DNA of 46,338 bases from Muribaculaceae bacterium. Lineage in GTDB: Bacteria; Bacteroidota; Bacteroidia; Bacteroidales; Muribaculaceae. The position numbers and the translations under genes were made by a program. This document shows positions 5,698 to 45,967 of the stretch, piece after piece. The notes under the pieces were generated by a model, which saw nothing but the letters and a program-made list of their open reading frames with translations, searched no databases and had not been told where the DNA came from. The stretch spans positions 298,907 through 345,244 of the forward strand of contig JAMPII010000001.1 in assembly GCA_023662835.1 (NCBI GenBank). Direction: 5' to 3'. Every line of letters starts with the position of its first letter. Position 1 is the first letter of the stretch.

Positions 5698-5844
5698 TTA
5701 TATTGGGTGTAGTTCTATGATTATTTCGTTATTCTTTTCTTCGACTATCACGGTGTACCGGGTCATAAGCAACCGTAATAAATCCATATCCAGTGTGTCA
5801 GTGCGTAACACTATTCCCGGAAGCGCAGTTTTAATAATCTCCAT
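5698..5844 (-). CDS. 48-residue ORF overlapping the end of the reverse transcriptase
   Basis: Frame MEIIKTALPGIVLRTDTLDM... ends ...IIIELHPI, 48 residues. Its ATG (5842-5844) lies inside the last codons of the DGR reverse transcriptase, a 14-bp overlap that implies coupled translation. The pattern, alternating hydrophobic residues with a possible beta-alpha-beta fold, is protein-like, and the ORF fills the only gap between the reverse transcriptase and the next gene. The family is not recognised. It may be a DGR-linked accessory gene or an ordinary lysis-region gene. Confidence 0.55.
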   Translation of the reverse strand: MEIIKTALPGIVLRTDTLDMDLLRLLMTRYTVIVEEKNNEIIIELHPI

Positions 5845-7012
5845 CTCTAATACGTTTTAGTGTTTCGGCTCTTGGCCGGTATTGCTTTTTGATTATGATG
5901 CTACGGTAATCGCCTTTTATGGTCAGATACTCCATAACATGCGGCTTAATCATGCCAACTATCTTTTTACGCTTACGGTACTCATCGCAATGGCGTAGTA
6001 ATCCCATGTAGGAATTAATACTGCAAATCGCGCTTTCTATTTCGGCAATATCCTTTGCTCGGTTCAATCGCTTTACCGCTCCAATGAAATTATTTATAGT
6101 GCGGTTGCAGGTATATGTACGATGGGGTCTAACAACGGCCCCGGTAAACTCTACGCCTTTGCGGTAATGTTGTATATAAAATTTCTTTTCGTTCAGGGTT
6201 AAATGATACTCGGCTAACTTTGCACGGATTTTAGGAACTGCGGCTAATAGTTTCTGTTTGTCAGCGTCGATGCAATAAAAATCATCAACGTACCGCCCAT
6301 GATATATAAACCCTAATAACTCTAAAAACCAATCCAAATTGTCTAACAGGAAATTGGCAAATATCTGTGCAAACAAATTCCCAATTGCTACGCCTTTACC
6401 ACGTCCGTTGGTGAATAATGATTTATTCGGTGGTAGGTAATCCCAAAAGTGCGCCGGGCTATGGCGTTCACAATTATACTCCGGCTCATGCAGGATAACC
6501 ACACGGCAAACGTAGCGTAAATCCTCCTTATCGTATTCGTGGTAATGCTCGACTATAAAGCGGTCAACCATTTCGGCTAACATCGCTTTTACGATGCTCA
6601 TAAAAAAGCCTTTTAAATCCAGCTTCATTATGTAGCAATCTTTAGTGTAATTCTCGCTGCAACGGCGTATATCTTCCTTTAGCATATTCACGCCGTATAA
6701 CTGCCCTTTACCTACTCGACAATTAAACGTGCGTGGGTTGAATATTTTTTCAAATAGCGGCTCTAATCTTTGCGCTATGTAGTGGTGTACTATCCTATCT
6801 TCAAATGAGGCGGCAAACACTTCGCGGTATCTCGGTCGCGTCACGACAAAACAAATTGACTTACCCGGCGTGTACGTCCGCGCATTAATACGGTCACGCA
6901 AAGCAATCAGTTTGCTTTCGTAATCCATTTCGTACACGGTCGCGCTGGCTGTTCTCCGCTTATTCTTACGGCAGTCATAGTACGCCTGTAGTATATCGTC
7001 TGTTGTTATCAT
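5831..7012 (-). CDS. DGR reverse transcriptase
   Basis: 393 residues, the usual size for diversity-generating retroelement reverse transcriptases. Fingers/palm motifs are visible: KLDLKGFF with the first catalytic Asp (132), YVDD (241-244) with the other two, and GVAIGNLFAQ (207-216). The last fits the DGR-type motif [ILV]GxxxSQ, with Ala in place of Ser, which distinguishes DGR enzymes from retroviral and group II intron enzymes. It copies the template RNA with errors at adenines and feeds the cDNA into the variable repeats. It lies directly after TR (51 bp) and Avd, the classic DGR order. Confidence 0.95.
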   Translation of the reverse strand: MITTDDILQAYYDCRKNKRRTASATVYEMDYESKLIALRDRINARTYTPGKSICFVVTRPRYREVFAASFEDRIVHHYIAQRLEPLFEKIFNPRTFNCRVGKGQLYGVNMLKEDIRRCSENYTKDCYIMKLDLKGFFMSIVKAMLAEMVDRFIVEHYHEYDKEDLRYVCRVVILHEPEYNCERHSPAHFWDYLPPNKSLFTNGRGKGVAIGNLFAQIFANFLLDNLDWFLELLGFIYHGRYVDDFYCIDADKQKLLAAVPKIRAKLAEYHLTLNEKKFYIQHYRKGVEFTGAVVRPHRTYTCNRTINNFIGAVKRLNRAKDIAEIESAICSINSYMGLLRHCDEYRKRKKIVGMIKPHVMEYLTIKGDYRSIIIKKQYRPRAETLKRIRDGDY

Positions 7013-7063: not shown

Positions 7064-7173
7064 TGCTGAAACCGGGCGCACTCTGCCCTTATTGCTGGCC
7101 TTAGTGTTCCAGTTGTTGAGGTTGCCGTTGCTGAGGTTCAGATTCCATGCGTTCGTCGCGCTGTTCTCTGTAG
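7064..7173 (-). repeat. DGR template repeat (TR)
   Basis: 110-bp template, transcribed leftward and not translated as part of a target gene. It aligns without gaps to VR1 (7802-7911) and VR2 (37133-37242). The end nearest the reverse transcriptase (7064-7091, beginning TGCTGAAACCGGGCGCACTC) is identical in all three copies; this is the initiation-of-mutagenic-homing region. In coding sense the variable part is full of AAC codons, which mutate to give Gly, Tyr, Ser, His, Asp, Arg and others at the targets. The transcript from the avd-TR-RT interval is the template RNA. Confidence 0.95.
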
Positions 7174-7304: not shown

Positions 7305-7724
7305 TTAGTCGTAACTTTCCAATTCCGGCGATTTAGTCTTAATCTCGGTTTTGCCTACCGCGATTAGTGACTTTTTCCATGCTGAACTTTGTTTGCCGAT
7401 AGCGTCCAAAAGTTCCACGATATGTGCGTGCCGCCCTTTGCCTTTTATCCATTGTCTTTCACCTGCTATACGCAATAAAGTTTTTATAGTTTCAAACTTT
7501 ACTTGGAAGTTAACCAAATGCGCTATGCGTGTTTCGCGGTCGCGGTTCATATACGCTGCTGCAATTTCCTGTATAATATCGGTCGCTAAATCGTGCAGTT
7601 TGCTACCGATGGTGTATTTGTAGCTGCGTGGAAAATTTGGTGTAACGTCCAAAATCTCATCCATTAGGGCGCGTGTGTCCAGATAGATGCGAGTATTTGA
7701 AACCAATTTTACTTTGTTTGCCAT
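7305..7724 (-). CDS. avd: DGR accessory protein, Avd-like four-helix bundle
   Basis: 139 residues, mostly helical and basic, with the length and charge of Avd and the related S23/four-helix-bundle proteins. Avd forms a pentameric barrel that binds the reverse transcriptase and the template RNA and is needed for cDNA priming. Recognisable parts are SRKLHDLATDIIQEIAAAY-like helix 2 (SYKYTIGSKLHDLATDIIQE, about residues 34-53) and the basic stretch RQWIKGKGRHAHIV. It is placed between the first target gene and TR, as in known DGRs. Confidence 0.85.
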   Translation of the reverse strand: MANKVKLVSNTRIYLDTRALMDEILDVTPNFPRSYKYTIGSKLHDLATDIIQEIAAAYMNRDRETRIAHLVNFQVKFETIKTLLRIAGERQWIKGKGRHAHIVELLDAIGKQSSAWKKSLIAVGKTEIKTKSPELESYD

Positions 7725-7743
7725 TGCTTTAGTTGCGTATAAT

Positions 7744-7763
7744 GGTGCGGCTTTCGCCGCACC
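7744..7763. promoter_or_regulatory. DGR target-site hairpin of VR1
   Basis: GGTGCGGC, loop TTTC, GCCGCACC: a perfect 8-bp GC-rich stem whose coding-strand loop is GAAA. It lies 38 bp past the end of VR1 and outside the coding region. DNA hairpins/cruciforms of this size with GRNA-type loops just beyond the VR are known to promote DGR retrohoming. Confidence 0.88.
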
Positions 7764-7789
7764 AAAGGTTAAAGATTGACCACTAACGA

Positions 7790-8575
7790 TTAACTAATAA
7801 ATGCTGAAACCGGGCGCACTCTGCCCTTATAGCTGGGCTTAGGGCCCCAGCCGTTGAGGTAGCCGCCGCTGAGGTTCAGATACCATGCGCCCGGCGCGCC
7901 GCCCTCTGTAGAAGTCCAGTACCAGTTTTCAAGCAACTGGGTAGCCCCCGATATAAGACTGAGGCAATAGTTAATCTTTGTCATGTTGGCGTAAATCATC
8001 ATCATTTCGCCTACTGACGGAAGCCACCATTTACCGGCTGTAAGTCCTTTGCCGTTTGCGTTGGCACGGCTGTAGAGATTACAAAAGCCGGGGGCGTAGG
8101 CTGCGGTATTGGTCACAGCCGCCGACGTGCTTTTTGATATGATAGATGCGGTGTTGGCCTTGCCGTTCCAATCGGCAATAGCCGTTACGCGGTCGCTTGT
8201 CGTGGTCGCTCCACCGCTTACCGCTGCGGAACTCCACAAAATACCTGCGCTGTCGGCTTCGGTAGGTGCCACTACCAGCACTTTGCCACCCTCGACTACT
8301 ACCACGCCGTCGGCAATTTCACCGCTGTTCTGTAGGCTCGTCCACTTATGGGGCTTTACCATTAGTGGATAATCATCGCTTTTGCGGTGGTACATGATAA
8401 ACACGCCGTCCATCATGTTGTTAAGGTTCATGCCGTCTAAAATAGCGGTCTTTAGGTTGTTAATGTCGATTAGCGACACTTTGCCGTTTGCGTCAACTTT
8501 CGCAAACTTTTCGCCACTGGCTACCGTGGTCGTGGTAGTCTGTGCGCTTAACTTCTTGGTCTTTTTAACTGCCAT
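7790..8575 (-). CDS. DGR target protein 1, C-type-lectin-like variable protein
   Basis: 261 residues. The N-terminal 120 residues are a Thr/Ala-rich linker and a small domain. The C-terminal part (about 135-261), with ADWNGKANT, KWWLPSVGEMMMIYANM and WYWTSTEGG...GRVRPVSAFIS, has the DUF1566/FGE-like C-type lectin form seen in DGR targets. VR1 covers about residues 222-258, and the frame ends just after the invariant GRVRPVSAF. Compared with TR, variable residues have become Gly, Tyr and Pro. It is the last gene of the tail block, so it is likely displayed on the tail tip or fibre as a receptor-binding protein. Its C-terminal 130 residues are homologous to the gene at 37109-37804. Confidence 0.9.
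   Translation of the reverse strand: MAVKKTKKLSAQTTTTTVASGEKFAKVDANGKVSLIDINNLKTAILDGMNLNNMMDGVFIMYHRKSDDYPLMVKPHKWTSLQNSGEIADGVVVVEGGKVLVVAPTEADSAGILWSSAAVSGGATTTSDRVTAIADWNGKANTASIISKSTSAAVTNTAAYAPGFCNLYSRANANGKGLTAGKWWLPSVGEMMMIYANMTKINYCLSLISGATQLLENWYWTSTEGGAPGAWYLNLSGGYLNGWGPKPSYKGRVRPVSAFIS
7802..7911 (-). repeat. DGR variable repeat 1 (VR1)
   Basis: 110 bp aligned to TR with 17 mismatches; 16 are at coding-strand adenines of TR, and one is G to C. The first 28 bp next to the stop codon are invariant. Confidence 0.94.
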
Positions 8576-20500: not shown

Positions 20501-20501
20501 A

Positions 20502-20822: not shown

Positions 20823-20833
20823 ATCATAAATCC

Positions 20834-22650: not shown

Positions 22651-22657
22651 ACCGCGA

Positions 22658-23285: not shown

Positions 23286-23299
23286 GACAGAAAACTATT

Positions 23300-24442: not shown

Positions 24443-24465
24443 ACTGAAACTGTTGGGGTTAATAA

Positions 24466-25161
24466 TTAATATAATTTCTGCGTGGCAGCGCGGCGCATTT
24501 CTCGCAACTGCATACGCATTGTTTCGTTATCTTCTTTGGGTTCGGGGTTCTCCGGCTCTTTGTCCTCGCGTAGCCCGGTTATAAACTCACGCGCTTCTAC
24601 TGACGTGTCGGGATAAGCCGGGTCAGCGGCCAAAGTAAAATCATACACGCCTGTTACCGCTTTAATAGTGTAGGTTATCTGCGTGGCACCGTTCACTACT
24701 TTTGCGGTTCGCTCCACAAAATCACTATCCCAATATCGGGTAGTAAATGCAAAACTACAGCCGGATATATCGCCACGGCGTACCAACTCTAACGCCTTAT
24801 CGCCGTCAACTGTGTTAGGCGCGTCAAACTCAAATTTTACGCCTTTCTCATCGACGGTGTAGGATAGTGTGCCATTGCCGGATTTACTACGCGCTAATAT
24901 CAACTGGCGGTCGTGGAACATGGTAAACTTAATGTCGCAACCGTCTAACATTTCCTTTGTGATAGCATCCGGCGCAATGACTTCGCGGGCCTCGCTGTCC
25001 TCATCACTCCATAGTGGTGCGGACGGCACTCCGAAAAGGATAGCGTAGCCGACAATAGTACGGCTCTGCGCCTCACCCTCGGCAGCCTCTCGCACTTGCA
25101 GTTCTGCGCAATCAACACGCAAAACTCGCCTTTGCTCTGTTTCCTTATTCTTCGTTGTCAT
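24466..25161 (-). CDS. HK97-family prohead protease
   Basis: 231 residues, overlapping the portal stop by 17 bp. The catalytic His is in FTMFHDRQLILARS (about residue 83), and the catalytic Ser in DISGCSFAF (about residue 135). YAILFG near residue 42 is the family's N-terminal motif. It cleaves the capsid delta domain. The C-terminal 30 residues are acidic and then basic and may bind the scaffold. Confidence 0.88.
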   Translation of the reverse strand: MTTKNKETEQRRVLRVDCAELQVREAAEGEAQSRTIVGYAILFGVPSAPLWSDEDSEAREVIAPDAITKEMLDGCDIKFTMFHDRQLILARSKSGNGTLSYTVDEKGVKFEFDAPNTVDGDKALELVRRGDISGCSFAFTTRYWDSDFVERTAKVVNGATQITYTIKAVTGVYDFTLAADPAYPDTSVEAREFITGLREDKEPENPEPKEDNETMRMQLREMRRAATQKLY

Positions 25162-26401
25162 TGTTTATATCTTTGTTTTTGGGTTCTTCCGGCGTTTGCG
25201 GTTGCGCCCCTATTTCTTCTATGCCCCGGAGATTAGCCGACACTAATATTTTATCGCCTCCGTCAACAGGCGGTAAATTTTCCTCTTTGCGCAGTTCGTT
25301 TACGGAAGCCGTACCGTTTGCAAGTCGTGTAGTTTGGTATTTTGCTTTGCTATCCAAATCACAGGCGTACAAACCGCGTCTGTCAAATTGGATTTTGTAT
25401 TTGTAGGCTAATTGCGGTGCAACCAATTTGCGGTGTAATTCCACCTCAATGCTTCGTAGCAATGGATTTAGTGTGTGGCTCAAAAAGGCTACATTAGCCT
25501 GCTCCGCGCTCTTGTAGTTGTTGCTGGTATCGTCAAACACAAAAGATGGATGCACACCGAAAAAGCGGCAAATCTCACGCACGGTAAATTTGCGGCTCTC
25601 CAAAAACTGCATATCGGTTGAACTCATTGAAAGTTGGTCGAAATGCAGCTGACCGGGTAGGCTTACAATCCTTTCGCCATCACGAAAACGGCTATCTATG
25701 TCTATCGCGGTTTTCTCCAGTTCCTTATCTTGGTACTCGCCAAATCCGCGTATGCTGGTGTCATTCGACACGATACCGCGCACATTACCGCCATTGGCAA
25801 ACCTTTCGTGGGTTTCCTTATCACCTGTTGCAGCGATATTCATTGTGAGCCGGGCAAAGGTTAAGACGCTCACGCCTTTTTTGCTATCCCGGACGGTCAG
25901 ACCCTTAATGTGTATAACCTCATCCTCCGTGTAACGTCCTTTAATGCCGTTGTTAAGGTCGCAAATGTCGTAGCGGTCATTAATCGTATCATGGTTCACC
26001 GTTCCGCGCTCACACAGTGCCAAACGGTCTATCTGCATGGTTACGAAATTGTAAACCGGCACTATGTAGGCATTGCCATCCAGTAGCACGTTTTGCACTA
26101 TTTGCCGCCAAAAGTCAAAGGCGTTAATAGCAAAATCCGGCTGCACATTCAGCAAATAGTTTAGTGGGCTTTTCTCATCATCGACAAAAATACCATCCTT
26201 GCGCTTTAGGTACTGCACCGGCAAATTTGCCACACTTTCGCTTAACAATTTCACACAGCGGTAAACGGTCGCTATGCTCATGGCTGTATGGTCGCCGTAA
26301 ACCAAAAGCGACGTAGCCCCGGTGCGGTATGTTGCGCCCGGGGTTTCTGCGTTGCTGGTTTCACGCTTAAAAAGCCCTAATATACTATGCCAAAAGCTCA
26401 T
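25145..26401 (-). CDS. Portal protein, HK97 family
   Basis: 418 residues with the start at MSFWHSILGLF (26401); an in-frame ATG 33 bp upstream gives an unlikely extra stretch. TAMSIATVYRCVKLLSESVANLPV (about residues 38-60) and the later HPSFVFDDTSNNYKSAEQANVAFL are hallmark portal segments. Forms the DNA entry ring and leads the head operon after the terminase. Confidence 0.92.
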   Translation of the reverse strand: MSFWHSILGLFKRETSNAETPGATYRTGATSLLVYGDHTAMSIATVYRCVKLLSESVANLPVQYLKRKDGIFVDDEKSPLNYLLNVQPDFAINAFDFWRQIVQNVLLDGNAYIVPVYNFVTMQIDRLALCERGTVNHDTINDRYDICDLNNGIKGRYTEDEVIHIKGLTVRDSKKGVSVLTFARLTMNIAATGDKETHERFANGGNVRGIVSNDTSIRGFGEYQDKELEKTAIDIDSRFRDGERIVSLPGQLHFDQLSMSSTDMQFLESRKFTVREICRFFGVHPSFVFDDTSNNYKSAEQANVAFLSHTLNPLLRSIEVELHRKLVAPQLAYKYKIQFDRRGLYACDLDSKAKYQTTRLANGTASVNELRKEENLPPVDGGDKILVSANLRGIEEIGAQPQTPEEPKNKDINNDNEE

Positions 26402-26552
26402 ACTATTACATTGCCAATATGCAAAATTAATCAAATAAAATGGCTTTTAAAAACTTGTGCATTAGTGTGTTATCTTCCTTTGTTTTCCTTTTTTTTACTT
26501 ATTTTCCTTTGTTGTCTTATTTTGTATTAACAAAATTTTACGTTAACAATTT
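26402..26552. other. Non-coding gap between portal and large terminase
   Basis: AT-rich 151 bp without a coding frame. Holds TAATTTTG on the minus strand (26422-26429), a possible -7 box, but no matching TTTG at the proper distance. Several TTTTCCTTTGTTTTC-like repeats (26479-26520) resemble those near attR. Confidence 0.35.
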
Positions 26553-28259
26553 TTAACGCTCGTAATCCATAAACATACGCATACACATCAGTTTGGTAAT
26601 TACTCCATCAATCTTCTGTGTTTGCTTCCGCTTTATCGGCTTGCAGTTCTCCAGTTTGTCAGTGTCTAACACGGCATTTCCAAAGCAATAGTAGTTAATC
26701 GGGTTGTCATTGATAAAGATATGCCCAGTTTTCGCCCCATGCTCAAAACTTTCAACCGGGGCTGTGAAATTGCCATAGGTCTGTTTTACCCCTGTCAGCA
26801 CATTGTTAGCCCCGGAAGCCGCCAACATATTTATTACCTCTTGGCTTTTCCATGGGTCATAGCCGATACCCAAAATGCGCACGACGGTATTAAGATACAG
26901 CACCCGGTTAACGATGGTGCGGTAGTCGATTACATCCCCATCGGTCAATATCAAATAACCTTTTTCAGCCCACACCCGATACATTCTTTCGTTTGGGTGC
27001 CCCGATAGTGCGCCATTCGGAAAAAAGTAATCAGTATGAAAATAGAAATTTTTACGCTGTTGGTCATAGATACCCATAGTGAGTGCGCTAAAATCGTCAC
27101 TCTCGGATAGGTCTAACGCTAACATCGCGTCGGGGCGGCCTTTGATTGCATCCAGCGGCATGGGCCTGGCGATACTACGCGCCAATGTGCTGCTTATCCA
27201 ACTGCGTTGCTCATTCTCGGCATAGATGTTAAGCAACTTGGTACGAAAAGCCAACATAGCATCAGCACCATTACGGATAGCGTTTTTGTACTCCTGTCGG
27301 TAAAAATCAATGCTGACAGTCACCCCCATGTGCGGTTGCACTTTGTACCACGTTTCTTCTGCGTCCTCTGCGTCGTCTAAATCCGGTTCAAAGATATGCG
27401 CAAATAGACTATCATCTTCAAACTCTCCTAACAACACGGATTTATAGCCCTGCAACATATCGTAAAACGGCCCGTCAAATACATCGCTGGCGGTGGTAAT
27501 AATCACTGTCAGCGGATTTTCGCGCACACCCATCGACGTTGTTAGCACGGTCAAAAGGCTGTTATCTCGCGCTTGGCTAAACTCATCCATGATTACCGTG
27601 CTGGCGTTCAAGCCGTCTTTAGTCCGGGCATTGGCTGTAAGACACTGCGCAAATGCCGTGCGGTCTTTGCGCTTGCTCTTAATGGTCTGCTCGTTGACCG
27701 TGTAGCGGCGTTCCTTGGGGTCTAATTTCCTCATGCAGCCGCGTATCACATCAAAACACTTTTTGGCCTGGTCGTTGCTGTTAGCCCCGGTGTAACTTTC
27801 GGCATTGGCATCGCCATACAACAAATCATCAATCGCCAATGAAGCACTTGAAGTTGTTTTGCTGAATTTGCGCGGAACAAACAAAACCGCTTCGCGCACC
27901 ACTCGCTTGCCATTATGCCAAAAGCCGTAGATACTCGCAAACTGAAATGTTTGCACCGGGGTTAGCGCATACTTCTGTAGTCCGCGCTTTCCCGGAAAAT
28001 GCAAATTTTCGTAAAGCGTAAAAAAACGCTTTACCTCTGTGGCGTTCACTCCGTATTTGTCGGCCATATAGAAAAACCGCTTTACTGCCAACTGCTCAAA
28101 AAGGTTGTGCGCGTCCGGGCGGTTGGCTACATCGGTCAGATACTTTACTAACCGTGTGTCAACATCGCGCAGATGGTATTCGGCTATCGGTATGCTTTTG
28201 AGCTGCGCTGTAACTTCCGCTTTCGCTTGCCGTAGTTTGTCCTTTTCTTCCTCTGTCAT
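26553..28259 (-). CDS. terL: Large terminase subunit
   Basis: 568 residues. ATPase: Walker A-like VPRKFSKTTS (about residues 129-137), Walker B VIMDEFSQA (222-230, with the catalytic Glu), and the coupling motif ITTASD (254-259). Nuclease: LALDLSESDD starting near residue 380 with the metal-binding Asp 383. Terminase_1 form. It pumps DNA into the prohead and cuts it. The start overlaps the small-subunit stop as ATGA. Confidence 0.93.
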   Translation of the reverse strand: MTEEEKDKLRQAKAEVTAQLKSIPIAEYHLRDVDTRLVKYLTDVANRPDAHNLFEQLAVKRFFYMADKYGVNATEVKRFFTLYENLHFPGKRGLQKYALTPVQTFQFASIYGFWHNGKRVVREAVLFVPRKFSKTTSSASLAIDDLLYGDANAESYTGANSNDQAKKCFDVIRGCMRKLDPKERRYTVNEQTIKSKRKDRTAFAQCLTANARTKDGLNASTVIMDEFSQARDNSLLTVLTTSMGVRENPLTVIITTASDVFDGPFYDMLQGYKSVLLGEFEDDSLFAHIFEPDLDDAEDAEETWYKVQPHMGVTVSIDFYRQEYKNAIRNGADAMLAFRTKLLNIYAENEQRSWISSTLARSIARPMPLDAIKGRPDAMLALDLSESDDFSALTMGIYDQQRKNFYFHTDYFFPNGALSGHPNERMYRVWAEKGYLILTDGDVIDYRTIVNRVLYLNTVVRILGIGYDPWKSQEVINMLAASGANNVLTGVKQTYGNFTAPVESFEHGAKTGHIFINDNPINYYCFGNAVLDTDKLENCKPIKRKQTQKIDGVITKLMCMRMFMDYER

Positions 28260-28669
28260 TCTGTTGGCTCTTTAGGCTCGGTGGAGTCTTTCGGGGTTCG
28301 CTTAATGATGGTTGGCTTTTTGCGTCCGGCGTTCTTTACTTTTTTGGTTAGGTCTATCAATGGGTCATCCTCATCGCCGCCGGTCAGTTCCTCCGCTGTA
28401 AGTCCTAACGCTTTCATCTGTCGCGTCACGCTATCCTGCGCGTCCTTTTGGATTTTGAAAACCGGGTGCGGTGCGAGTTTATGACCGTAGCGCGTTTCCT
28501 CCAGCACTGTTGTTTCCTCCAGTTGGTCTATATCGTCATTAGCCATGTCGAGGGTGCGCAGTGCGCTTGCCAAAGATAAAATTTGGGTGTCAAGTCCTTT
28601 GCTGTATTTCCCGGCAGCTTTAAGGGCCTTGGCAATGTCTGTTTTGTATTCGTTAACTTTTTTAGCCAT
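28256..28669 (-). CDS. terS: Small terminase subunit, P27-type
   Basis: 137 residues, helical, with the layout of the P27-type small terminase (MAKKVNEYKTDIAKALKAAGKY, followed by an acidic middle and a basic tail KKPTIIKRTPKD). It recognises packaging DNA and starts the late gene block. Coupled to terL. Upstream A-rich AAATTTTAACA(A) leader. Confidence 0.8.
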   Translation of the reverse strand: MAKKVNEYKTDIAKALKAAGKYSKGLDTQILSLASALRTLDMANDDIDQLEETTVLEETRYGHKLAPHPVFKIQKDAQDSVTRQMKALGLTAEELTGGDEDDPLIDLTKKVKNAGRKKPTIIKRTPKDSTEPKEPTE

Positions 28670-28769
28670 ATTTGTTAAAATTTCTAAAGTTCCGCAATTC
28701 CGAAAAATCGCTCACGCAAAAACAAAGGTGGGGGCGAGGTTTAACGTAGGGGTGGGGCCTTTAAAAAAT

Positions 28770-28777
28770 CCCCCCCC
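28770..28777 (-). repeat. Homopolymer tract G8 (coding strand) after the HNH gene
   Basis: Eight C on the plus strand just after the HNH endonuclease stop, followed in coding sense by T6. Intergenic. One of seven 7-9-base G/C tracts confined to 28.7-42.1 kb. Confidence 0.9.
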
Positions 28778-28781
28778 GGCC

Positions 28782-29117
28782 TCAATCGGAGAAAAATTTT
28801 TTTATCACACCGGCTACCTGTTGCTCGTTGCGTCGCTTGGTCGCTTGCTTGCCGCTTCTGCCCATATCGGTATGTACCTTAACGTGGCAGTCATGGCACA
28901 AAGCGCGTAGGTTGGTGGGGCTAAACATCAGCCGTTGTTTATCCGCTCTGCTTACCCCATACTCCACAGGTCTTATGTGGTGTACCTCTATGGCAGGGGT
29001 TATGCGCCCTTCTTCTTCGCACTGCTGACATAATGGGTGTTTAGTCAGTATATCACGCCGCAGATACAACCAGCGTGTAGTGTGTATCATGTGTATATAG
29101 TCCTTATCCTTTGCCAT
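28782..29117 (-). CDS. HNH endonuclease next to terminase
   Basis: 111 residues. HHIRPVEYG (about 46-54) is the HNH catalytic part, and the zinc-binding pairs are CQQCEEEG (about 30-37) and CHDCH (about 74-78). HNH proteins of this size just ahead of terminase genes are often needed for packaging cuts in HK97-like phages. Overlaps the SNF2 gene end. Confidence 0.9.
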   Translation of the reverse strand: MAKDKDYIHMIHTTRWLYLRRDILTKHPLCQQCEEEGRITPAIEVHHIRPVEYGVSRADKQRLMFSPTNLRALCHDCHVKVHTDMGRSGKQATKRRNEQQVAGVIKKFFSD

Positions 29118-30489
29118 TGCTATGTTTGCGTATTAAATAATTAAGACTGTCTAACAAACTCTGCTGCTTTTCCTTTTTATCTTCAAGTGACGCGCTGGCG
29201 CGTTCATCAACCGTATGCGCCCCAATCAGTTTGTACACGGTGACAGGGTGTTTTTGTCCTTGTCTATGCAGTCGTGCGTTTGCCTGTTGGAATAACTCTA
29301 AATCCCAACCGGTGCCAAACCAAACTATATAGTGGCCGCCCTGCTGCATATTCAGGCCGTAGGCAGTGGCGGCAGGATGGGCCAATAACACATCTATGCC
29401 CCCGGCGTTCCACTCCATCAGTTGTTTTTCGCCCTCATATACTTCCACCCGGTAGCCCTTTAGTTTCTTGCGTATTCGGTCTATATCATGCTTGAATTGA
29501 TAGAAAACCAATACGCTGTTACCGTTTGCGGCCTCTACTATCTCGGCTAACTTATCTACCTTTTCGCTATGGATTTCGTGTACGTTCCTATCTTCATCAT
29601 ACACTGCACCGTTTGAAAATTGCATTAGTTTGTTCATCAGTCCGGCTGCTGAATTAGCCAATATGTTTGACGGCTCGCCCTCATGCTCCTGTGTGAACTC
29701 TAACACCTTTTCGCGCTCAAACTTATTGTACGCCTCCATCGTTGCAGGTGACATTTCGACATTCACGGTGTGCATCAGCAAATCCGGCAATTGCAAATAA
29801 TCTTTCGCTTGCATAGACAGGCAAATATCGGCTATGCGGTTCCGTATGATTTCGTCACAGCCTTTTTTCACGTCGCAGCGCACTACTATGTTATTCCAGC
29901 GATGGGTTTCAAAATAGGTTTCGCGATACTTGGTAACTGACTTTCCTAACCTCTGCCCCATGTCGATACAATACATCTGACCCCAAAGGTCGATAAGTCC
30001 GTTAGGCGCAGGGGTGCCGGTCAAACCGATTACTCGCTTTACCGTGGGCCGTGCCACTCGCATAGCCTTGAAGCGTTGAGAATTTGAGTTTTTAAAGCTG
30101 GTTAACTCATCAATCACCAACACATCAAACGGAAGTTTACCGCCGTAAACTCCTACAAGCCATACAAAGTTATCACGCCCAATAACGTAAACATCCGCTT
30201 TTTCTGCCAATGCCATTTTACGTTTTTTCTCCGTACCCATCACCTTAACCACTTTAAGCCCTTGCAGGTGGTTCCACTTTGCCGCCTCTGTACTCCATGT
30301 GGTTTCAGCAACTTTCTTGGGTGCTACTACAAGTGTACGGCTAATCTCGCACTCGTCGATTAATTCCTGTATCGCGGTCAGTGTGCTAACCGTCTTGCCT
30401 AATCCCATGTCGAGAAACAAACCGCAGTGTGGATAATCCAATATCCATTGTGTCGCTGTACGCTGGTAGTCGTATGGTCTGTAATTCAT
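29104..30489 (-). CDS. SNF2-family DEAD-like helicase
   Basis: 461 residues. Walker A DMGLGKTVST (27-36), Walker B VIDELTS (125-131), motif III LTGTPAPNG, and the C-terminal motif ANARLHRQGQKHPVTVYKLI, all typical of phage SNF2/DEAD helicases. It lies after the VRR-NUC gene (4-bp overlap). This trio SNF2-VRR_NUC-VirE is a common phage replication/recombination cassette. Confidence 0.93.
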   Translation of the reverse strand: MNYRPYDYQRTATQWILDYPHCGLFLDMGLGKTVSTLTAIQELIDECEISRTLVVAPKKVAETTWSTEAAKWNHLQGLKVVKVMGTEKKRKMALAEKADVYVIGRDNFVWLVGVYGGKLPFDVLVIDELTSFKNSNSQRFKAMRVARPTVKRVIGLTGTPAPNGLIDLWGQMYCIDMGQRLGKSVTKYRETYFETHRWNNIVVRCDVKKGCDEIIRNRIADICLSMQAKDYLQLPDLLMHTVNVEMSPATMEAYNKFEREKVLEFTQEHEGEPSNILANSAAGLMNKLMQFSNGAVYDEDRNVHEIHSEKVDKLAEIVEAANGNSVLVFYQFKHDIDRIRKKLKGYRVEVYEGEKQLMEWNAGGIDVLLAHPAATAYGLNMQQGGHYIVWFGTGWDLELFQQANARLHRQGQKHPVTVYKLIGAHTVDERASASLEDKKEKQQSLLDSLNYLIRKHSNGKG

Positions 30490-30812
30490 TTTGCGATATT
30501 GTTTAAAAGTTCGTCGATGTCGGCTTTATTGTCGATTACCTTAACTTCATGCCCCATGCCGGATAATTCCGCGTGGCGTATCAATTGCCGTTTGTCCGGC
30601 TTGCGTCCTTTGCTTTTAAGTTCTACCCAAATCACTTTTGCGCCCGGAAGCACCAACAGGCGGTCGGGATAGCCTACCATGTTCGGGTTAGAGTATTTGA
30701 GGCAGGGCAAACCGTGTTCCTTGGCCTTTTCAACCAAATATCTTTCTATCGACTTTTCCGATACTTCGGCATGGTCGGTTATGTGGGTTAAATCTATCTT
30801 TTTCATCTTCAT
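30486..30812 (-). CDS. VRR-NUC domain nuclease
   Basis: 108 residues. NPNMVGYPDRLLVLPGAKVIWVELKSKG contains the PD-(D/E)XK-like core of VRR-NUC (G-x-PD and E-x-K, about residues 48-70). Single-domain form common in phages, linked to helicases and thought to resolve branched DNA. Followed upstream by a 273-bp AT-rich gap. Confidence 0.9.
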   Translation of the reverse strand: MKMKKIDLTHITDHAEVSEKSIERYLVEKAKEHGLPCLKYSNPNMVGYPDRLLVLPGAKVIWVELKSKGRKPDKRQLIRHAELSGMGHEVKVIDNKADIDELLNNIAK

Positions 30813-30821
30813 TTTTGAGGT

Positions 30822-31084
30822 GTAACCAAAATTTGTAACTTGGGTAAAAACTTTCTTATACGCGGGATATATGCGTATTTATGCTATATTACCCCTATAA
30901 TACATTATATAATATCTTATATATATTTTATAGTTACATAGTTACATATAGTTATTAATTATTGATTATCAAATTTTTACAGGTGTAACCAAAAACGTAA
31001 CTAATAGCGTCGCTTTGGTTTACAGTTACCAAAACTGGATTTTGTAACCGAAAATGCGATTTTTGATTTTTCATTTTCAGTTAC
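30822..31084. other. Candidate replication origin (GTAAC repeats and AT-rich core)
   Basis: Between VRR-NUC and the VirE helicase. GTAAC or its complement occurs nine times (for example 30822-30826, 30835-30839, 30984-30988, 30997-31001, 31044-31048, and GTTAC at 30933, 30941, 31025, 31080). Several are paired as GTAACCAAAA...GTAAC. Between the repeats there is a very AT-rich stretch (about 30890-30970) suited to melting. No coding frame is seen. Origin role is inferred from repeats plus AT richness and from the neighbouring replication genes. Confidence 0.5.
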
Positions 31085-31085
31085 G

Positions 31086-33527
31086 TTAAATCTCGCTTTC
31101 GTCCTCGGTGCTGACAGGGCGTTTAAACGCTTTTTGCACTCCGTACAATGCTTGCGCGTGTCTGCTTGCGCCTACTCGCTCCCATCCTAATGCGTCCAGC
31201 ATACGGCAAACTTTCCGGGATAGGTATTTGTATTCCTTATCCGTCATGTCACGCCCCATACGTTCACAAATAAACTCTGCCGCACATACACTATCGCGTA
31301 CTATAATCCCGTCCTCGCTCAATGGGTCAGGGTTTTTAAGCCATGCGCGGCGGCGCATCAAATCCCAACTGCCCCAGTCGGTAGGCAGCTTCGTGTTTAG
31401 ATATGCCACTAACACCGCCTGTAATTCGTCGGTGTCATTGTCGGTGTACTCACTCTGTCGCTGTCTTGCTTCGGCTTCCAAATCACCGGGCAAATATAGT
31501 TTCTCGCCCTGCTTCCAATATTCTACAGCCTCGGCCCACAACTGGTCCCTATCGGCTATAAGCTGCTCAAACCATTGCGCCCCATGCTTGCGTAATTCCG
31601 GCTTTATAGGGATAATCGGGAAACGTCTGTTGCCTGTTTCATCCTTTAGAAAATATTGCTCATTAGTTGTGCCGAAAAACACGCACTGACGCGGAAATAT
31701 CTCTTTGTGTACGGCATAGGCCGGGCGGTATTCGTCACTCCGTGCGGTAATGAATTGCTTTACAGTCGAAATTTCACTGCGCTTCATTCCGTCTAACTCG
31801 CCTATCTCGATAAGGTGCGCACCGCGTACCTGCTCTGCGCCCTCTTTGCCCTCCATAGACGTTAGCCCATCTTTGTAGTATTCGCCGCCCATGATGCTAA
31901 TGAGCGTCGATTTACCTGCGCCTTGCGGCCCTGCGAGTATAAGGCAGTAATCATATTTGCAGCCCGGCTCCATGACACGCGCCACTGCTGCGGTGAAATG
32001 GATGCGAGTAATGGCGCGGTTAAGTCTGCTATCCTCCGCACCGGCATAGTCGATAATAAGACGTTCCAGTCTTGGCACTCCATCCCATACAAGCCCCTTG
32101 AAATATTCGCGTATCGGATGGCGGCGATGCCGTGTTATTACCATGTCTAATGCGTCCTTGATTTTGTCTTTGCCTGTAACATCGTAGGCGTTTTCCAACC
32201 AACCGCGCAAATTAGCATCATCACGGTTGCCCCATGATGCCGCCTTTGCATCCCACGGCAAACCGCCTACTACTGAAATGTTATTGCGCAGTAGGTCTAA
32301 ATACAGATGTTTTTTTAGTCCAGGGTCATTCTCCAGCACAGCCACAATGTTGTTAATGGTGCTTTTCAATGCCCCTTTGCGGTCATAGTCCAAATGCTCC
32401 ATCCAGTCGGTGTTAGCGTCCTCGGTGGGTGCTTCTGTCGCGTCGATGTCGGCAAAGTCGCTATCTGCGTCCGCGATGCGTTCTTTGGTGAGCAATACGC
32501 GCACCGCCTTATCTGTGGCTGCAAAATCCTGCATTTTAAGGTATGAAGGCCTCCGGGTAATGTCCGTTACCTTTGTACCCTCGTCCTCTATGCCAAACTT
32601 ATGTATGCGCACCAAATCAAAGGCGTTGCAAAGTTGACGGCTCGCCGGGTCTGTGTCATGGTGGGAAAATGCAAACTTGTTTTCGTATGTGACACAGCCC
32701 CCGGCCACGCTTCCAGCTCTATAGGTGTATCGCCCATCATGCCCGGTTTTTTCGTAGATGTCGGGCAGGAATTTTTCTATAGCGTCCTCAATGGTGTAGG
32801 CTCGGCAAAATGCGCCTATCAGTCCGGGTTTCTCCAGTGGGTCACCGGCCTTGCGTATCTCATGCGCCAACACGTCACCCTCACGGCTCGACATGGGCCA
32901 CTCGCTAACATCCTGCGGATTTCGGTATGTGGCCAATACTTTATCCACGTCAAAGGCCGGGCCGTCTTGATAATCGAAAACAAAATCACCGTCACGGCTT
33001 GTACTCGGCCAATAAAACAGGCGTGGCAGCTGGTATGTGGTATGGTCGAAAAGTTCTATGCCTATCTTTGCAGTCCAGTATCGGCAAACCGGCTCATACT
33101 CGGCAGGGGTCATTTGTCTGTTAGCCGGAAGCAACAGGCGTAAACGCGGTTTCTCCTTTGTGTGCTTGTGAGTGCTGTAGATGGCGGCGGCGCAGTCGAA
33201 ATTCATCGTAAAATCATCCCACACGTCTGCTGTGCCATAGTCAATATCAAGTGTGACGATGGTACGGTACAGTACGTTTGCGGTCTTTCGTGTGCCGTTG
33301 CTTAAATAGCCTCCGACAAAACCGCCTACATCCTTAATGCCGCTTTGTTCCTCTCGGCTCATGCGTAGATACTCGCGTACTGTTTCGCCGGTTCGCTTCG
33401 TGTCAGCACACCGGGTTAAAATCTCGCTCCACTTCCATATACGGTTTTTCCACTTTTTAGATAACCGGCTGTGCGCTGTGGCAATGTCTAACTCAAAATC
33501 GTATTTTGGTTTTATTGGATTAGCCAT
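31086..33527 (-). CDS. VirE/VapE-type helicase with N-terminal BT4734-like domain
   Basis: 813 residues. N-terminal BT4734-like part (about residues 45-190) has the form of an archaeo-eukaryotic primase fold (TLDIDYGTADVWDDFT, with paired acidic residues). The C-terminal VirE part has Walker A LAGPQGAGKST (about 529-539), an acidic ATPase motif LIEIGELD, and FFGTTNEQYFLKDETGNRRF. This is a superfamily 3-type phage replication helicase, probably a primase-helicase. It overlaps the gene before it by 16 bp. Confidence 0.85.
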   Translation of the reverse strand: MANPIKPKYDFELDIATAHSRLSKKWKNRIWKWSEILTRCADTKRTGETVREYLRMSREEQSGIKDVGGFVGGYLSNGTRKTANVLYRTIVTLDIDYGTADVWDDFTMNFDCAAAIYSTHKHTKEKPRLRLLLPANRQMTPAEYEPVCRYWTAKIGIELFDHTTYQLPRLFYWPSTSRDGDFVFDYQDGPAFDVDKVLATYRNPQDVSEWPMSSREGDVLAHEIRKAGDPLEKPGLIGAFCRAYTIEDAIEKFLPDIYEKTGHDGRYTYRAGSVAGGCVTYENKFAFSHHDTDPASRQLCNAFDLVRIHKFGIEDEGTKVTDITRRPSYLKMQDFAATDKAVRVLLTKERIADADSDFADIDATEAPTEDANTDWMEHLDYDRKGALKSTINNIVAVLENDPGLKKHLYLDLLRNNISVVGGLPWDAKAASWGNRDDANLRGWLENAYDVTGKDKIKDALDMVITRHRRHPIREYFKGLVWDGVPRLERLIIDYAGAEDSRLNRAITRIHFTAAVARVMEPGCKYDYCLILAGPQGAGKSTLISIMGGEYYKDGLTSMEGKEGAEQVRGAHLIEIGELDGMKRSEISTVKQFITARSDEYRPAYAVHKEIFPRQCVFFGTTNEQYFLKDETGNRRFPIIPIKPELRKHGAQWFEQLIADRDQLWAEAVEYWKQGEKLYLPGDLEAEARQRQSEYTDNDTDELQAVLVAYLNTKLPTDWGSWDLMRRRAWLKNPDPLSEDGIIVRDSVCAAEFICERMGRDMTDKEYKYLSRKVCRMLDALGWERVGASRHAQALYGVQKAFKRPVSTEDESEI

Positions 33528-33769
33528 TGTTTATGCCCCCCCAGCATTTCACGGAAATAGTCGGTGTTTTCTTCATCGGTTATTATCTCTATGTCGCGCA
33601 CTCCTGCACCGCTTCCGTCTGTAACAATATCGCGTATCACTTGGGGCGCGGTTGATTTTTTTATGCGTAATTCGCACTGTGGCGTGTTGTCGGCTTCCAT
33701 GATGTCGTAGAGTGCCGACAATTCATTGCAGGGTATCACAAATCTTAATATAACGTCTGCCATAGTCAT
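33512..33769 (-). CDS. Small phage protein of unknown function
   Basis: 85 residues; start MTMADVILRF (or MADV 6 bp on). Mixed alpha/beta, acidic, with a G7 tract (33536-33542) near its end encoding GG. Ends within the VirE gene start. Not recognised. Confidence 0.6.
   Translation of the reverse strand: MTMADVILRFVIPCNELSALYDIMEADNTPQCELRIKKSTAPQVIRDIVTDGSGAGVRDIEIITDEENTDYFREMLGGHKQWLIQ
33536..33542 (-). repeat. Homopolymer tract G7 (coding strand)
   Basis: Seven G inside the last codons of the 85-residue gene, 9 bp from the VirE start codon. Confidence 0.9.
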
Positions 33770-34564
33770 TTACTTTTTGAAGTGGTCGGGTAAATAGGAA
33801 AAAATGTGTTTGATAACTTCTACAGTCCAGCCGTTACCCAACATCTTGTATTGCTGTGTTTCCGATACCACAAACTTGTACCATGTTGGTATAGTCTGCA
33901 ACCTCGCGCACTCTGTCGGTGTCAGTTTCCGTATGCGCGGTATTTGCTCGTCCTCTGCCTCCAGCACGTTTATAGTGCGCCCTCCGTGTTCGCTCATCAG
34001 TGCCGGGGCTATTCCGTCCGGGTGGTAAACTCGGTTTTGTTGGTACGGCTGTGCGCCGTTGCTTTCCCTGCTTGGGTTAAGCTGCATTATCAAATTATCC
34101 TTTTGCACGGTTGTAATAGTATTCGTTTTGCCGTCGGTTCTCGGCTCTAATCGGGTTATCGCCTTGCGTGGCTCTTTGATTTCGTGCGCCTCATACTGGC
34201 GGCGTATCGCTTTGCCATACTCGGTGCGTTGTGAGGTGAGGCACACAGGTTGCATTATTAGATTGTCCTTTGCCACAGTAGTAAGGCAGTTGGTTTTACC
34301 GGGTTCCGGGCATGGTTCTAAATGCTGCTCTATGCTTCCGTCCGGGGCGGTGTTCCGTCCTCTTGACGCTACACAAATAGCATCTTCAATTATATATGGT
34401 TGGTGGTTCGTTGTCAATGTTTCGCTTTTTTGGTCGATAAATAATATTGTTCCAAACTCGGATAATCCCGATTTCCGGCTATCGCCTCGGTGTGGTCGTA
34501 GTCCTCTGTCGGTTAGCGATACGCCGCCAATTCGCGGTATGTCGGGGGGGGTGTTACTTTTCAT
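33770..34564 (-). CDS. C5 cytosine methyltransferase, C-terminal part (split gene)
   Basis: 264 residues. Holds motifs IX-X of C5 methyltransferases at the end: RIRKLTPTECARLQTIP (about 212-228) and YKMLGNGWTVEVI (about 240-252). Upstream is a long, repeat-containing target-recognition region with two similar units ending KDNLIMQ. It cannot act alone, since motifs I-VIII are in the neighbouring N-terminal frame. It starts at an ATG next to a C8 tract (34544-34551). Either a second polypeptide that reassembles with the N-terminal part, or the remainder of one gene broken by frameshifts; the second seems more likely. Confidence 0.7.
   Translation of the reverse strand: MKSNTPPDIPRIGGVSLTDRGLRPHRGDSRKSGLSEFGTILFIDQKSETLTTNHQPYIIEDAICVASRGRNTAPDGSIEQHLEPCPEPGKTNCLTTVAKDNLIMQPVCLTSQRTEYGKAIRRQYEAHEIKEPRKAITRLEPRTDGKTNTITTVQKDNLIMQLNPSRESNGAQPYQQNRVYHPDGIAPALMSEHGGRTINVLEAEDEQIPRIRKLTPTECARLQTIPTWYKFVVSETQQYKMLGNGWTVEVIKHIFSYLPDHFKK
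34544..34551 (-). repeat. Homopolymer tract C8 (coding strand) in the methyltransferase
   Basis: Eight G on the plus strand, 13 bp after the start of the C-terminal methyltransferase frame, at the junction with the middle frame. Confidence 0.9.
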
Positions 34565-34759
34565 TCTCCATTACATAAGGCCTGGTGCCAAATCCATCGT
34601 AGCCATTATAGTATGATGCCGTTATGCACGGTACTTTACCGCTATCGTTGAATAATAGGCCGCCGCCATTGTTGATATATGGTTTTACTATTGTGGCACT
34701 TTCACTAAATTGCGTACTCCTTGACCGCCTACAATTATGGTGCTGCACTTGCCCCCCCC
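34554..34759 (-). pseudogene. Displaced middle segment of the methyltransferase
   Basis: Reading from the G8 tract with one G fewer gives EGGQVQHHNCRR... through ...GYDGFGTRPYVMENEK, ending at 34554. It contains the pattern GKVPCITASYYNGYDG typical of repeats in long phage C5 methyltransferases. With 7 G the N-terminal frame would reach 313 residues. Nine G instead opens a different frame that stops soon after. Thus the frame depends on tract length. Confidence 0.6.
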
Positions 34760-35496
34760 TCATGGAACTTTGCACGGAAGCCGTTACCGGCTTTCTCGTT
34801 CCGCTCATTGTAGGCTAACAGGCTCTTAACCGTTTCCTCTTTCAGATAGTATTTTTCATCTACCTTATCCTCTAAAATATCTTTTAGATATAGTTCGCGG
34901 TCTTGCGGTTGAGGTATCGCGCTGTAATACCCATCGAACAAATTAAGTTTACGCACTCTTATGTTAGTCCAGTATATACGCCTACGGTTCTGCGCAGATA
35001 CAAGCGCACTATTTATGTGTACGCCTGTAATGCCTATTGCATCCGATAGCACCTTTTCCCATTTTTTACCCATTTCCACATTTTCAAGTAAAAACAGGAT
35101 GTCGGGGTTACTCTCTCTCAATTCCGACAAAATGCGCATATATTCCCAAAACAGATAACTTTGCCCCTCAAATTCAAATCCGGCGGCTTTCAGCTCCATG
35201 TAGCGCGGCAGGGTGTATATTTCTTCATGCGCTGTGGTTTTCATCCCTGCGCGTTTTCCGGCAAAACTGAATGACTGGCAGGGGCTACCGCCTATGAGCA
35301 TATCGACATGACCCAATGCCCGGCCATCGATATTCCGCACGTCACCTAACTGTATGGTGTCCGGGAAATTTGCCATAGTGTTTTGTATGGCAAACTTATC
35401 TACTTCGCTGGCGTAATATTTTTCAATCGGTATGCCTAACTCCTGTAGGGCGATGCGTCCGCAACTCATACCGTCAAATAGGCTTAATACAATCAT
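34735..35496 (-). CDS. dcm: C5 cytosine methyltransferase, N-terminal part (frame cut at G8)
   Basis: 253 residues as read. Motif I FDGMSCGRIALQ (7-18), motif IV GGSPCQSFSFAG with catalytic Cys73 (69-80), motif VI ENVEMG (138-143) and motif VIII QNRRRIYW (169-176) are all present. The frame ends ASAAP soon after the G8 tract at 34752-34759. It transfers a methyl group to C5 of cytosine; in a phage this protects against host restriction. The start overlaps the stop of the corrected PP-loop frame as ATGA. Motifs IX-X are in the next frame. Confidence 0.85.
   Translation of the reverse strand: MIVLSLFDGMSCGRIALQELGIPIEKYYASEVDKFAIQNTMANFPDTIQLGDVRNIDGRALGHVDMLIGGSPCQSFSFAGKRAGMKTTAHEEIYTLPRYMELKAAGFEFEGQSYLFWEYMRILSELRESNPDILFLLENVEMGKKWEKVLSDAIGITGVHINSALVSAQNRRRIYWTNIRVRKLNLFDGYYSAIPQPQDRELYLKDILEDKVDEKYYLKEETVKSLLAYNERNEKAGNGFRAKFHEGGASAAP
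34752..34759 (-). repeat. Homopolymer tract G8 (coding strand) in the methyltransferase
   Basis: Eight C on the plus strand. One fewer restores an open frame through the middle segment to 34554. Confidence 0.9.
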
Positions 35497-37076: not shown

Positions 37077-37098
37077 TTGCCCGGCTTTCGCCGGGCAA
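37077..37098. promoter_or_regulatory. DGR target-site hairpin of VR2
   Basis: TTGCCCGGC, loop TTTC, GCCGGGCAA: a perfect 9-bp stem with coding-strand loop GAAA, 34 bp past VR2. Same plan as at VR1; both share TTAAAGATTGAC between hairpin and VR. Confidence 0.88.
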
Positions 37099-37108: not shown

Positions 37109-37804
37109 TTAAAGATTGACTATTGATTTAAATGCTGAAACCGGGCGCACTCTGCCCTTACTGCTGGCCTTAGTGCGCCAGCTGCCGAGGTTGCCGTTGC
37201 TGAGGTGCAGATGCCATGCGTCCGTCGCGCTGCCCTCTGTAGATGTCAGATACCATTTGCCGGGTATCTCTTGACCTCCGACAAATCGGAGTGCGGCATT
37301 AATGGCTTTGCGGTTAGTATATATCAGATACATTTCGGCCACGCTCGGTATATACTCACCATCTTTGAGTTTGATAGCCGGATTAAGGCCTATTTCTTTT
37401 AGATGCTCTGTGTTGGTCTTGCCGTTCCAGTCTGCCACAGCATCTATATATGTATCTATGTAGCCGTCATAGTCGGTTGTGTCCTCATTGACGGTTAGCG
37501 TTACATCGTTGCCGTTGTCTGCGTCATGGAGTGCCACAGTTAGGGCGCGTTCACCCTGCTTTATTGCGATGCCTGTTACCTCTGCATCGGTAGATATTAG
37601 ACGCTCACCCGGAAATTTTTGTATCTTGCCGTCTGCATATACGACATAGATACCATCCGATAAGACGCTACCATATCCTGTAGAGTTTTGCTCTGCCACG
37701 ACTTTGCCATTTTTGATAAAGTCGTAAATCTCCTGTAGTGTGCAGTCCTGTAAGCTGCACATTTCTTTGACGATTTCCAAACGGTCTTTTTCTTCTGTTG
37801 TCAT
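37109..37804 (-). CDS. DGR target protein 2, C-type-lectin-like variable protein in the early region
   Basis: 231 residues. VR2 covers about residues 188-224, then GRVRPVSAFKSIVNL ends the protein. ADWNGKTNT, EYIPSVAEMYLIYTN and WYLTSTEGS align with target 1 (lectin-like fold). The N-terminal part (about 1-110) differs. Not next to structural genes but between replication genes, about 30 kb from the reverse transcriptase. Its upstream region matches that of the major tail gene, so late expression and a tail or accessory adhesion role are inferred. A role inside the cell cannot be ruled out. Confidence 0.9.
   Translation of the reverse strand: MTTEEKDRLEIVKEMCSLQDCTLQEIYDFIKNGKVVAEQNSTGYGSVLSDGIYVVYADGKIQKFPGERLISTDAEVTGIAIKQGERALTVALHDADNGNDVTLTVNEDTTDYDGYIDTYIDAVADWNGKTNTEHLKEIGLNPAIKLKDGEYIPSVAEMYLIYTNRKAINAALRFVGGQEIPGKWYLTSTEGSATDAWHLHLSNGNLGSWRTKASSKGRVRPVSAFKSIVNL
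37133..37242 (-). repeat. DGR variable repeat 2 (VR2)
   Basis: 110 bp aligned to TR with 11 mismatches, every one at a template adenine (coding strand). The 28 bp at the stop-codon end are identical to TR and VR1. Confidence 0.94.
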
Positions 37805-37892
37805 ATTGTTTACAAATGTTAAAATTTTATGAGATTTCGCGTTTAAGCGCGTTTCGTTATCTCGGAGTATGTTTTATTATGTTTGTTATCTC
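37805..37892 (-). promoter_or_regulatory. Leader of DGR target 2, shared with the major tail gene
   Basis: First 27 bases differ at one position from those at 21622-21648; the 15-bp block TATGTTTGTTATCTC recurs at the same spacing. The gap between target 2 and the small HNH gene is otherwise empty. Confidence 0.55.
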
Positions 37893-37910
37893 TGTGGCTC
37901 TAATGCGCTC

Positions 37911-45926: not shown

Positions 45927-45941
45927 ATAAAAATCCCTCAT

Positions 45942-45967
45942 CCAATAAGCAACCAATAAGCAACTTT
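45942..45967 (+). repeat. Right integrase arm-type site (26-bp repeat)
   Basis: Identical to 4134-4159: CCAATAAGCAA twice, then CTTT, same orientation. Confidence 0.75.

What the first reader, a model, noticed from the sequence alone, without database searches (positions are those of the whole stretch)
37109..37804. Remote second DGR target 30 kb from the reverse transcriptase, in the early gene region
VR2 (37133-37242) matches TR over 110 bp with 11 mismatches, all at template adenines, and its gene shares a lectin-like C-terminus with target 1. It lies among replication genes. One retroelement therefore seems to diversify two different phage proteins, one outside the tail block. This is the strongest candidate for a new biological arrangement in the window.
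Basis: partly seen in the sequence, partly recalled or inferred. Interest (0 to 1): 0.92.

Follow-up and report, generated by a model that had tools for sequence, protein, structure and literature searches.

The report
Distant second target of phage mutator
A gut-bacterium prophage carries a self-mutating cassette that appears to rewrite the tips of two of its own lectin-like proteins, one beside the cassette and one far away among the DNA-copying genes, an arrangement already described in related cultured phages.

Summary
VR2 (37133-37242, minus strand) matches the template repeat (TR, 7064-7173) over 110 bp with 11 mismatches, all at template adenines (P 2e-6 for random positions). It ends a 231-aa gene between the DNA polymerase A and methyltransferase genes. 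Both targets, not the TR, are followed by a GC-rich GAAA-loop hairpin of the kind needed for homing in phage BPP-1.
That this is a new arrangement is not supported. Hedzet 2021 (PMC8143477) reports a near and a distant DGR target in Bacuni phages, at this same locus; Benler 2021 reports a structural plus a remote non-structural target in Quimbyvirus.
Added here: between Bacuni F1 and F2, 16 of 16 substitutions in a 13-kb stretch lie in the remote VR, 15 at template A. The locus recurs in many related virus contigs. A related prophage without detectable RT keeps the gene but lacks the hairpin. A 105-bp upstream element has its only other copy in the window before the major tail protein gene, which weakens the 'early gene' reading.
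Best reading: a second diversified adhesin, probably made with tail proteins; virion location unproven.

The parts
5831..7012 (-). DGR reverse transcriptase (393 aa)
   Evidence: PF00078 E 5.4e-17, phrog_1423 E 6.2e-77; 65% identical to the Bacuni F1 RT
7064..7173 (-). template repeat (TR), 37 A in 110
   Evidence: no GC-rich hairpin after it, only a 6-bp AT stem
7305..7724 (-). Avd accessory protein (139 aa)
   Evidence: PF22296 bAvd E 2.6e-25, phrog_3206 Avd
7790..8575 (-). near target T1 (261 aa), on the tail-gene side
   Evidence: PF07603 below cut-off; 62% identical to the Bacuni F1 near target
7802..7911 (-). VR1, 17 mismatches to TR, 16 at A
7743..7764 (-). hairpin after VR1: 9-bp stem, GAAA loop
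37109..37804 (-). remote target T2 (231 aa): short own N-terminus, then the ~180-aa module shared with T1
37133..37242 (-). VR2, 11 mismatches to TR, all at A, codon positions 1 or 2
37077..37098 (-). hairpin after VR2: 9-bp stem TTGCCCGGC, GAAA loop, 34 nt after the TTTCAGCA end of the homing site
37805..37909 (-). 105-bp upstream element of T2
   Evidence: 76% identical over 106 nt to the copy before the major tail protein gene; conserved before T2 in C39, G119 and L013-L016
21625..21729 (-). the only other copy of that element found in the window, directly before the major tail protein gene 21148-21624
   Evidence: the G201 phage (locus L016) also has a copy directly before its major tail protein gene

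Best explanation
T2 is a genuine second target of the phage's one DGR. The RT with Avd copies the TR transcript with errors at adenines; the cDNA replaces VR2 at the 3' end of T2 by homing guided by the GC-rich homing site, identical in TR and both VRs up to TTTCAGCA, and by the hairpin just downstream, as at VR1. T2 carries the same variable module as the near target T1 on a different, short N-terminus, so it most likely is a second variable adhesin, made late with the tail proteins from a shared type of control element, although its gene sits in the replication block. Shown by sequence: TR-VR pairing, adenine bias, hairpin, shared module, conserved position, shared upstream element, and past diversification of the same locus in Bacuni phages. 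Inferred: activity in this prophage, timing of expression, virion location and receptor binding.
For: 11 of 11 mismatches at A. Hairpins with GAAA loops after VR1 and VR2 and no GC-rich one after TR; in Bacuni F1 loops GAAA (near) and GCAA (remote), none after its TR. VR1, VR2 and the Bacuni near target fit the 7-10 bp stem and GRNA loop of Guo 2011 (passages). Bacuni F1 versus F2: 16 of 16 substitutions in F1 21760-34890 lie in the remote VR, 15 at template A, and one more lies in the near VR. F1 versus F4: 18 of 24 substitutions in one 24.8-kb block lie in the near VR, and the remote VR is identical. Remote VRs stay equal to the window's TR at non-A positions while the gene body diverges: C39 73 of 73 with body 83.5% identical, G119 71 of 73 with 74.0%, L016 70 of 73 with 73.5%. 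In 9 distinct elements from 10 IMG/VR records with both RT and T2, 115 of 124 T2-VR mismatches are at TR A (two records gave the same element, counted once). Upstream element shared with the major tail protein gene in two phages. T2 body under purifying selection: dN/dS 0.15 against C39 and 0.08 against G119, the latter with dS saturated at 2.66.
Against: No read data, so activity in this very prophage is unseen. Hairpin rule not met everywhere: C39 has a TTTT loop, L016 and the Bacuni remote target GCAA, and of 35 further T2-like virus loci 20 had a hairpin of 7 bp or more within 110 nt and 15 had none. The distances of 34-40 nt, by my measure from TTTCAGCA, lie at or beyond the 4-34 bp of Guo's examples. 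In L013-L016 the N-terminus is a DUF3310 domain, and in L081 and L096 a Cys-rich stretch precedes T2 in frame, which fits a cytoplasmic protein as well. The upstream element is absent before T2 in Bacuni F1 and not seen, beyond a 24-nt match, before the tail gene of G119; it gave hits in 4 of 18 records, two of them only 26-44 nt long; in two other phages the T2 upstream region had no match before the tail gene. In G119, T2 persists beside a different tail-region gene and no RT.
Confidence: 0.6

Rival explanations
1. T2 is a true DGR target but a non-structural protein that acts inside the infected cell, for example binding host or rival-phage molecules in defence, counter-defence or superinfection exclusion.
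For: Position among replication and methyltransferase genes; no signal peptide that I could see by eye (no predictor run); DUF3310 N-terminus in L013-L016; kept in the G119 prophage, which has a different tail-region gene and no detectable DGR; Benler 2021 argues the same for the Quimbyvirus remote target.
Against: Upstream element shared with the major tail protein gene in two phages; same module as the tail-side target; a DUF3310-like motif also occurs on target 2 of phage nd12, considered there as a possible interface for multimers or other phage proteins (PMC10743442 passage).
Confidence: 0.27
2. T2 is a lysogenic-conversion gene (moron), transcribed from its own promoter in the prophage and shown on or near the cell surface.
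For: Its own upstream element and a strong hairpin downstream make it look like a separate unit.
Against: No signal peptide seen by eye; the downstream hairpin is explained as the DGR target hairpin; the upstream element is shared with a tail gene.
Confidence: 0.08
3. VR2 is a fossil: a past copy of the VR region no longer visited by the RT.
For: G119 suggests that a remote target can lose its RT and its hairpin and persist.
Against: VR2 has an intact hairpin and no non-A difference from TR in 110 bp; the same locus changed between near-identical Bacuni isolates.
Confidence: 0.05

Closest known systems
Bacuni phages F1, F2, F4 of Bacteroides uniformis (MT635598, MT806186, MT806185; Hedzet 2021)
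   Same: Same gene order, RT 65% identical, Avd, TR, near target and a distant target between polA and the methyltransferase; two targets stated in the paper (their VR1 is the distant one)
   Different: Other host (window genome's kin carry Muribaculaceae names); T2 about 50% identical; Bacuni F1 lacks the upstream element and has GCAA in the remote hairpin loop
Quimbyvirus DGR (Benler 2021)
   Same: One DGR with a structural target and a remote non-structural C-type-lectin target near methyltransferases
   Different: As reported there: remote target on the opposite strand and RT in three overlapping frames; here same strand and RT in one frame. No sequence comparison was made
nd4 and nd12 phages with two targets (tentaclins, PMC10743442)
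   Same: Two C-type-lectin targets from one TR; nd12 target 2 has a DUF3310-like N-terminus
   Different: Described there as one DGR cassette holding both targets; one target has its VR near the 5' end
BPP-1 DGR and Mtd
   Same: A-specific TR to VR transfer, Avd, target hairpin with GRNA loop
   Different: One target next to the RT (recalled); a larger adhesin, 381 aa

Membership tests
Diversity-generating retroelement | RT gene with nearby TR | tested here: met
Diversity-generating retroelement | VR-TR mismatches confined to template adenines | tested here: met
   VR2 11 of 11; VR1 16 of 17
Diversity-generating retroelement | Avd accessory protein | tested here: met
   PF22296 E 2.6e-25
Diversity-generating retroelement | GC-rich hairpin with 4-nt GRNA loop after the VR, not after the TR | tested here: met
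   window VR1 and VR2, against the rule; not met as to loop in C39, L016 and the Bacuni remote target
Diversity-generating retroelement | C-type lectin fold at the VR | tested here: inconclusive
   PF07603 below cut-off; structure tool off
Diversity-generating retroelement | VR changes over generations in this phage | not testable with these tools
   no reads; differences seen only at the same locus in Bacuni F1 versus F2
Bacuni-type two-target phage | Second target between polA and the methyltransferase, same gene order | tested here: met
Tail receptor-binding protein (T2) | Present in the virion | not testable with these tools
   needs proteomics
Moron / lysogenic conversion gene (T2) | Expressed in the lysogen | not testable with these tools
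   needs RNA data

The most novel reading that the evidence does not exclude
A widespread group of Bacuni-like phages uses one DGR to vary both the tail-side adhesin and a separate cytoplasmic lectin-like protein carried in the replication module, so that recognition outside and inside the cell share one mutation engine; the inner protein is kept even when the DGR is lost.
Probability: 0.2. Interest if true: 0.75.

Novelty: new member of a known kind. Interest (0 to 1): 0.4.

Why it matters
DGR surveys that look only next to the RT miss remote targets; Roux 2021 says so for its own survey (passage). Here the remote target looks like a fixed part of a phage group rather than an accident, in most cases with its own target hairpin, so one mutation engine serves two proteins at different genome positions. 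What the second protein does is open, and Bacuni F1/F2/F4 are cultured phages in which it could be tested directly. The orphan in G119 gives a natural comparison of a target with and without RT.

Tried and rejected
Chance similarity: rejected. Assembly duplicate of VR1: rejected; VR1 and VR2 differ, and the flanks and N-termini differ. 'Only one such RT in the genome': P0003 finds one, but phrog_1423 finds a second, unrelated RT on C62, which sits beside a different TR-VR-like repeat pair, so it does not explain VR2.

The first search for T2 relatives in genome contigs, with the single protein, found none; the alignment found 41, with titles mostly but not only of Bacteroidales (some are MAGs named Elusimicrobia, Saccharibacteria, Alphaproteobacteria and others). 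No PDB relative of T2 by sequence at E up to 1; for T1 one hit at E 0.13. A sigma-70 scan around T2 was at the level of shuffles (14 found, 14.0 expected). Rfam gave only the tRNA.

Not every relative fits. 4 of 13 records of 30 kb or more with a close RT had no near full-length T2 (G206, G226, G227, G228). G224's T2 match is split over two frames and was not repaired; only 49 positions were compared there. Of the 10 records with T2, 9 were compared (not G214, whose T2 is cut by the contig end), plus 28805_2217; L083, L099 and L110, which also hold an RT match, were not compared. 15 of 35 T2-like virus loci had no hairpin of 7 bp or more, L083 and L087 of the polA group among them; L113 was left out because its match runs to the contig end. 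No TR was found for T2-like genes of G173, G182, G121, G013, G181 and G119 in the stretches fetched. In G051 and G159 the hairpin loops do not fit GRNA, and one remote VR of G159 showed no hairpin. A second F1-F4 block of 15.3 kb shows 7 mismatches and 7 gap openings that I did not look into. Structure prediction was the planned test of the T2 N-terminus and could not be run.

Full report
WHAT IS THERE. The host is therefore probably a Muribaculaceae bacterium. The window holds a prophage of about 41.8 kb between 27-bp repeats at 4133-4159 and 45941-45967. At its left side lies a complete DGR: RT 5831-7012, TR 7064-7173, Avd 7305-7724 and near target T1 7790-8575 with VR1. T2, 37109-37804, ends with VR2. 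TR against VR2: 11 mismatches in 110, all at A; P 2.0e-6. The finding's coordinates and counts are exact.

COMPETENCE OF VR2. Guo 2011 (PMC3240598, passages) showed for phage BPP-1 that a hairpin after the VR is needed for homing, and gave 7-10 bp GC-rich stems with GRNA loops as the pattern in phage DGRs. VR2 is followed by a 9-bp stem with GAAA, VR1 likewise; after the two TRs examined (window, Bacuni F1) there is no GC-rich stem, only a 6-bp AT stem after the window's. C39 has a 10-bp stem with TTTT, L016 and Bacuni's remote VR have GCAA, so the loop rule is not met there, yet the Bacuni remote VR has plainly varied (below). In 10 IMG/VR records with RT and T2, a hairpin followed the T2 VR in 10, the T1 VR in 9 and the TR in 0 (two of the ten gave the same element; in one, 35498_115, only 49 positions could be compared).

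EVIDENCE OF USE. In Bacuni F1 versus F2, 16 of 16 substitutions in F1 21760-34890 lie in the remote VR, 15 of 16 at template A; F1 15610-21739 shows none, and one more lies in the near VR. A one-base shift near F1 21746 had to be allowed for. Hedzet 2021 gives 15 (table) or 16 (text) in its secondary VR. Between F1 and F4 the remote VR is identical and 18 of the 24 substitutions in one 24.8-kb block lie in the near VR. Between prophages the gene body drifts, but VR positions that are not A in the TR stay nearly the same: C39 73 of 73, G119 71 of 73, L016 70 of 73, with the last ~400 nt before the VR 83.5, 74.0 and 73.5% identical. The window's TR stands in for the TRs of these other phages.

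HOW WIDESPREAD. T2 lies shortly after polA in the window, in contig C39 of the same genome, in G119, in L013-L016 and in Bacuni F1, and in 16 of 36 further IMG/VR loci (L080-L115); 14 of those 16 have a hairpin of 7 bp or more after the stop codon. Some contigs are near-copies of each other (L013-L016; L090 and L091). The other loci have other neighbours. Of 32 virus records with a relative of the RT, 13 are 30 kb or longer, and 9 of these hold a near full-length T2 (one, G224, is split over two frames). In nine distinct elements 115 of 124 T2-VR mismatches are at TR A. Two further elements, in G051 and G159 (not checked to be phages), have a near target plus two remote ones about 47 to 56 kb from the RT; mismatches at A are 12 of 12, 18 of 18, 14 of 15 and 11 of 13.

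AN ORPHAN. G119 (92% complete) has the same replication and head genes and a T2 about 71% identical, but no RT or Avd match at the limits used, no near target in its contig, and a 1622-aa gene at the tail-fibre position, where the window has its tail-tip and DGR genes ('fibre' is my label from position, no family search was made). Its T2 is open and its upstream element is kept, but no stem of 6 bp or more follows its VR. So the protein seems to have a use without diversification, and the hairpin to decay without the RT. This is one case in an incomplete genome.

WHAT T2 MAY DO. T1 and T2 share a ~180-residue C-terminal module and differ in the first ~50 residues. A 105-bp element before T2 has one other copy in the window, directly before the major tail protein gene (tail by PF06199 and phrog_1407); the phage of L016 has the same pair. 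That suggests that T2 is made with tail proteins, though the element is not shown to be a promoter, Bacuni F1 and G119 lack the pair, and two other phages tested do not show it. Against a virion role, L013-L016 have T2 fused to DUF3310 (PF11753 E 4.9e-9) with no ATG start between the parts. I put a virion adhesin at about 0.6 and an intracellular role at about 0.27.

PRIOR WORK. Hedzet 2021 (passages, outline and section 3.5) describes the near and the distant target in Bacuni phages. Benler 2021 (passages) describes a structural and a defence-side target. Roux 2021 (passages) states that its survey would miss remote targets. The tentaclin paper (passages) treats two-target cassettes and notes a DUF3310-like N-terminus on one target 2. 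Passages of PMC9727126 and PMC12135933 were also seen. Searches on Bacuni DGRs and on DGR with DUF3310 listed two papers each. I saw no mention of the shared upstream element, the polA-side conservation in other phages or the orphan in the passages I read; the library holds open-licence papers only, so this is no proof of absence.

VERDICT. A real, well-formed second DGR target; a new member of a known arrangement; interest moderate because the role of the second protein is open and testable in cultured phages.

Noticed in passing
G000:C62 (locus L276) 880-2610: What looks like a second, unrelated DGR in the same genome: RT only 21% identical to the window's, with 111-nt repeats differing at 14 positions, all A in one copy.
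   Followed up: partly
G000:C39 (locus L007), whole 10.2-kb contig: Fragment of a second related prophage in the same genome, with its own T2 whose VR differs from the window's TR at 7 core positions, all A; DUF2815 and DUF2800 proteins 100% identical. No TR or close RT of its own was found in the genome, so homing across prophages is possible.
   Followed up: partly
window 33770-35496: Cytosine-5 methyltransferase split over two genes (34735-35496 matches dcm 1-222; 33770-34564 matches dcm 211-327); Bacuni F1 also has two methyltransferase pieces here.
   Followed up: no
window 21625-21729 and 37805-37909: The two copies of the 105-bp upstream element share CACRGAGATAACAAACATA and AAATTTTAACATTTNTAAACAAT blocks; could be a phage-specific promoter or operator.
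   Followed up: partly
L052, L056, L057, L075, L076 (genomes G051 and G159): Elements with one DGR and three targets, two of them about 47 to 56 kb from the RT and on the other strand.
   Followed up: partly
L081 4914-5792, L096 8087-9019: A Cys-rich stretch runs in frame into T2; fusion or alternative start not settled.
   Followed up: no
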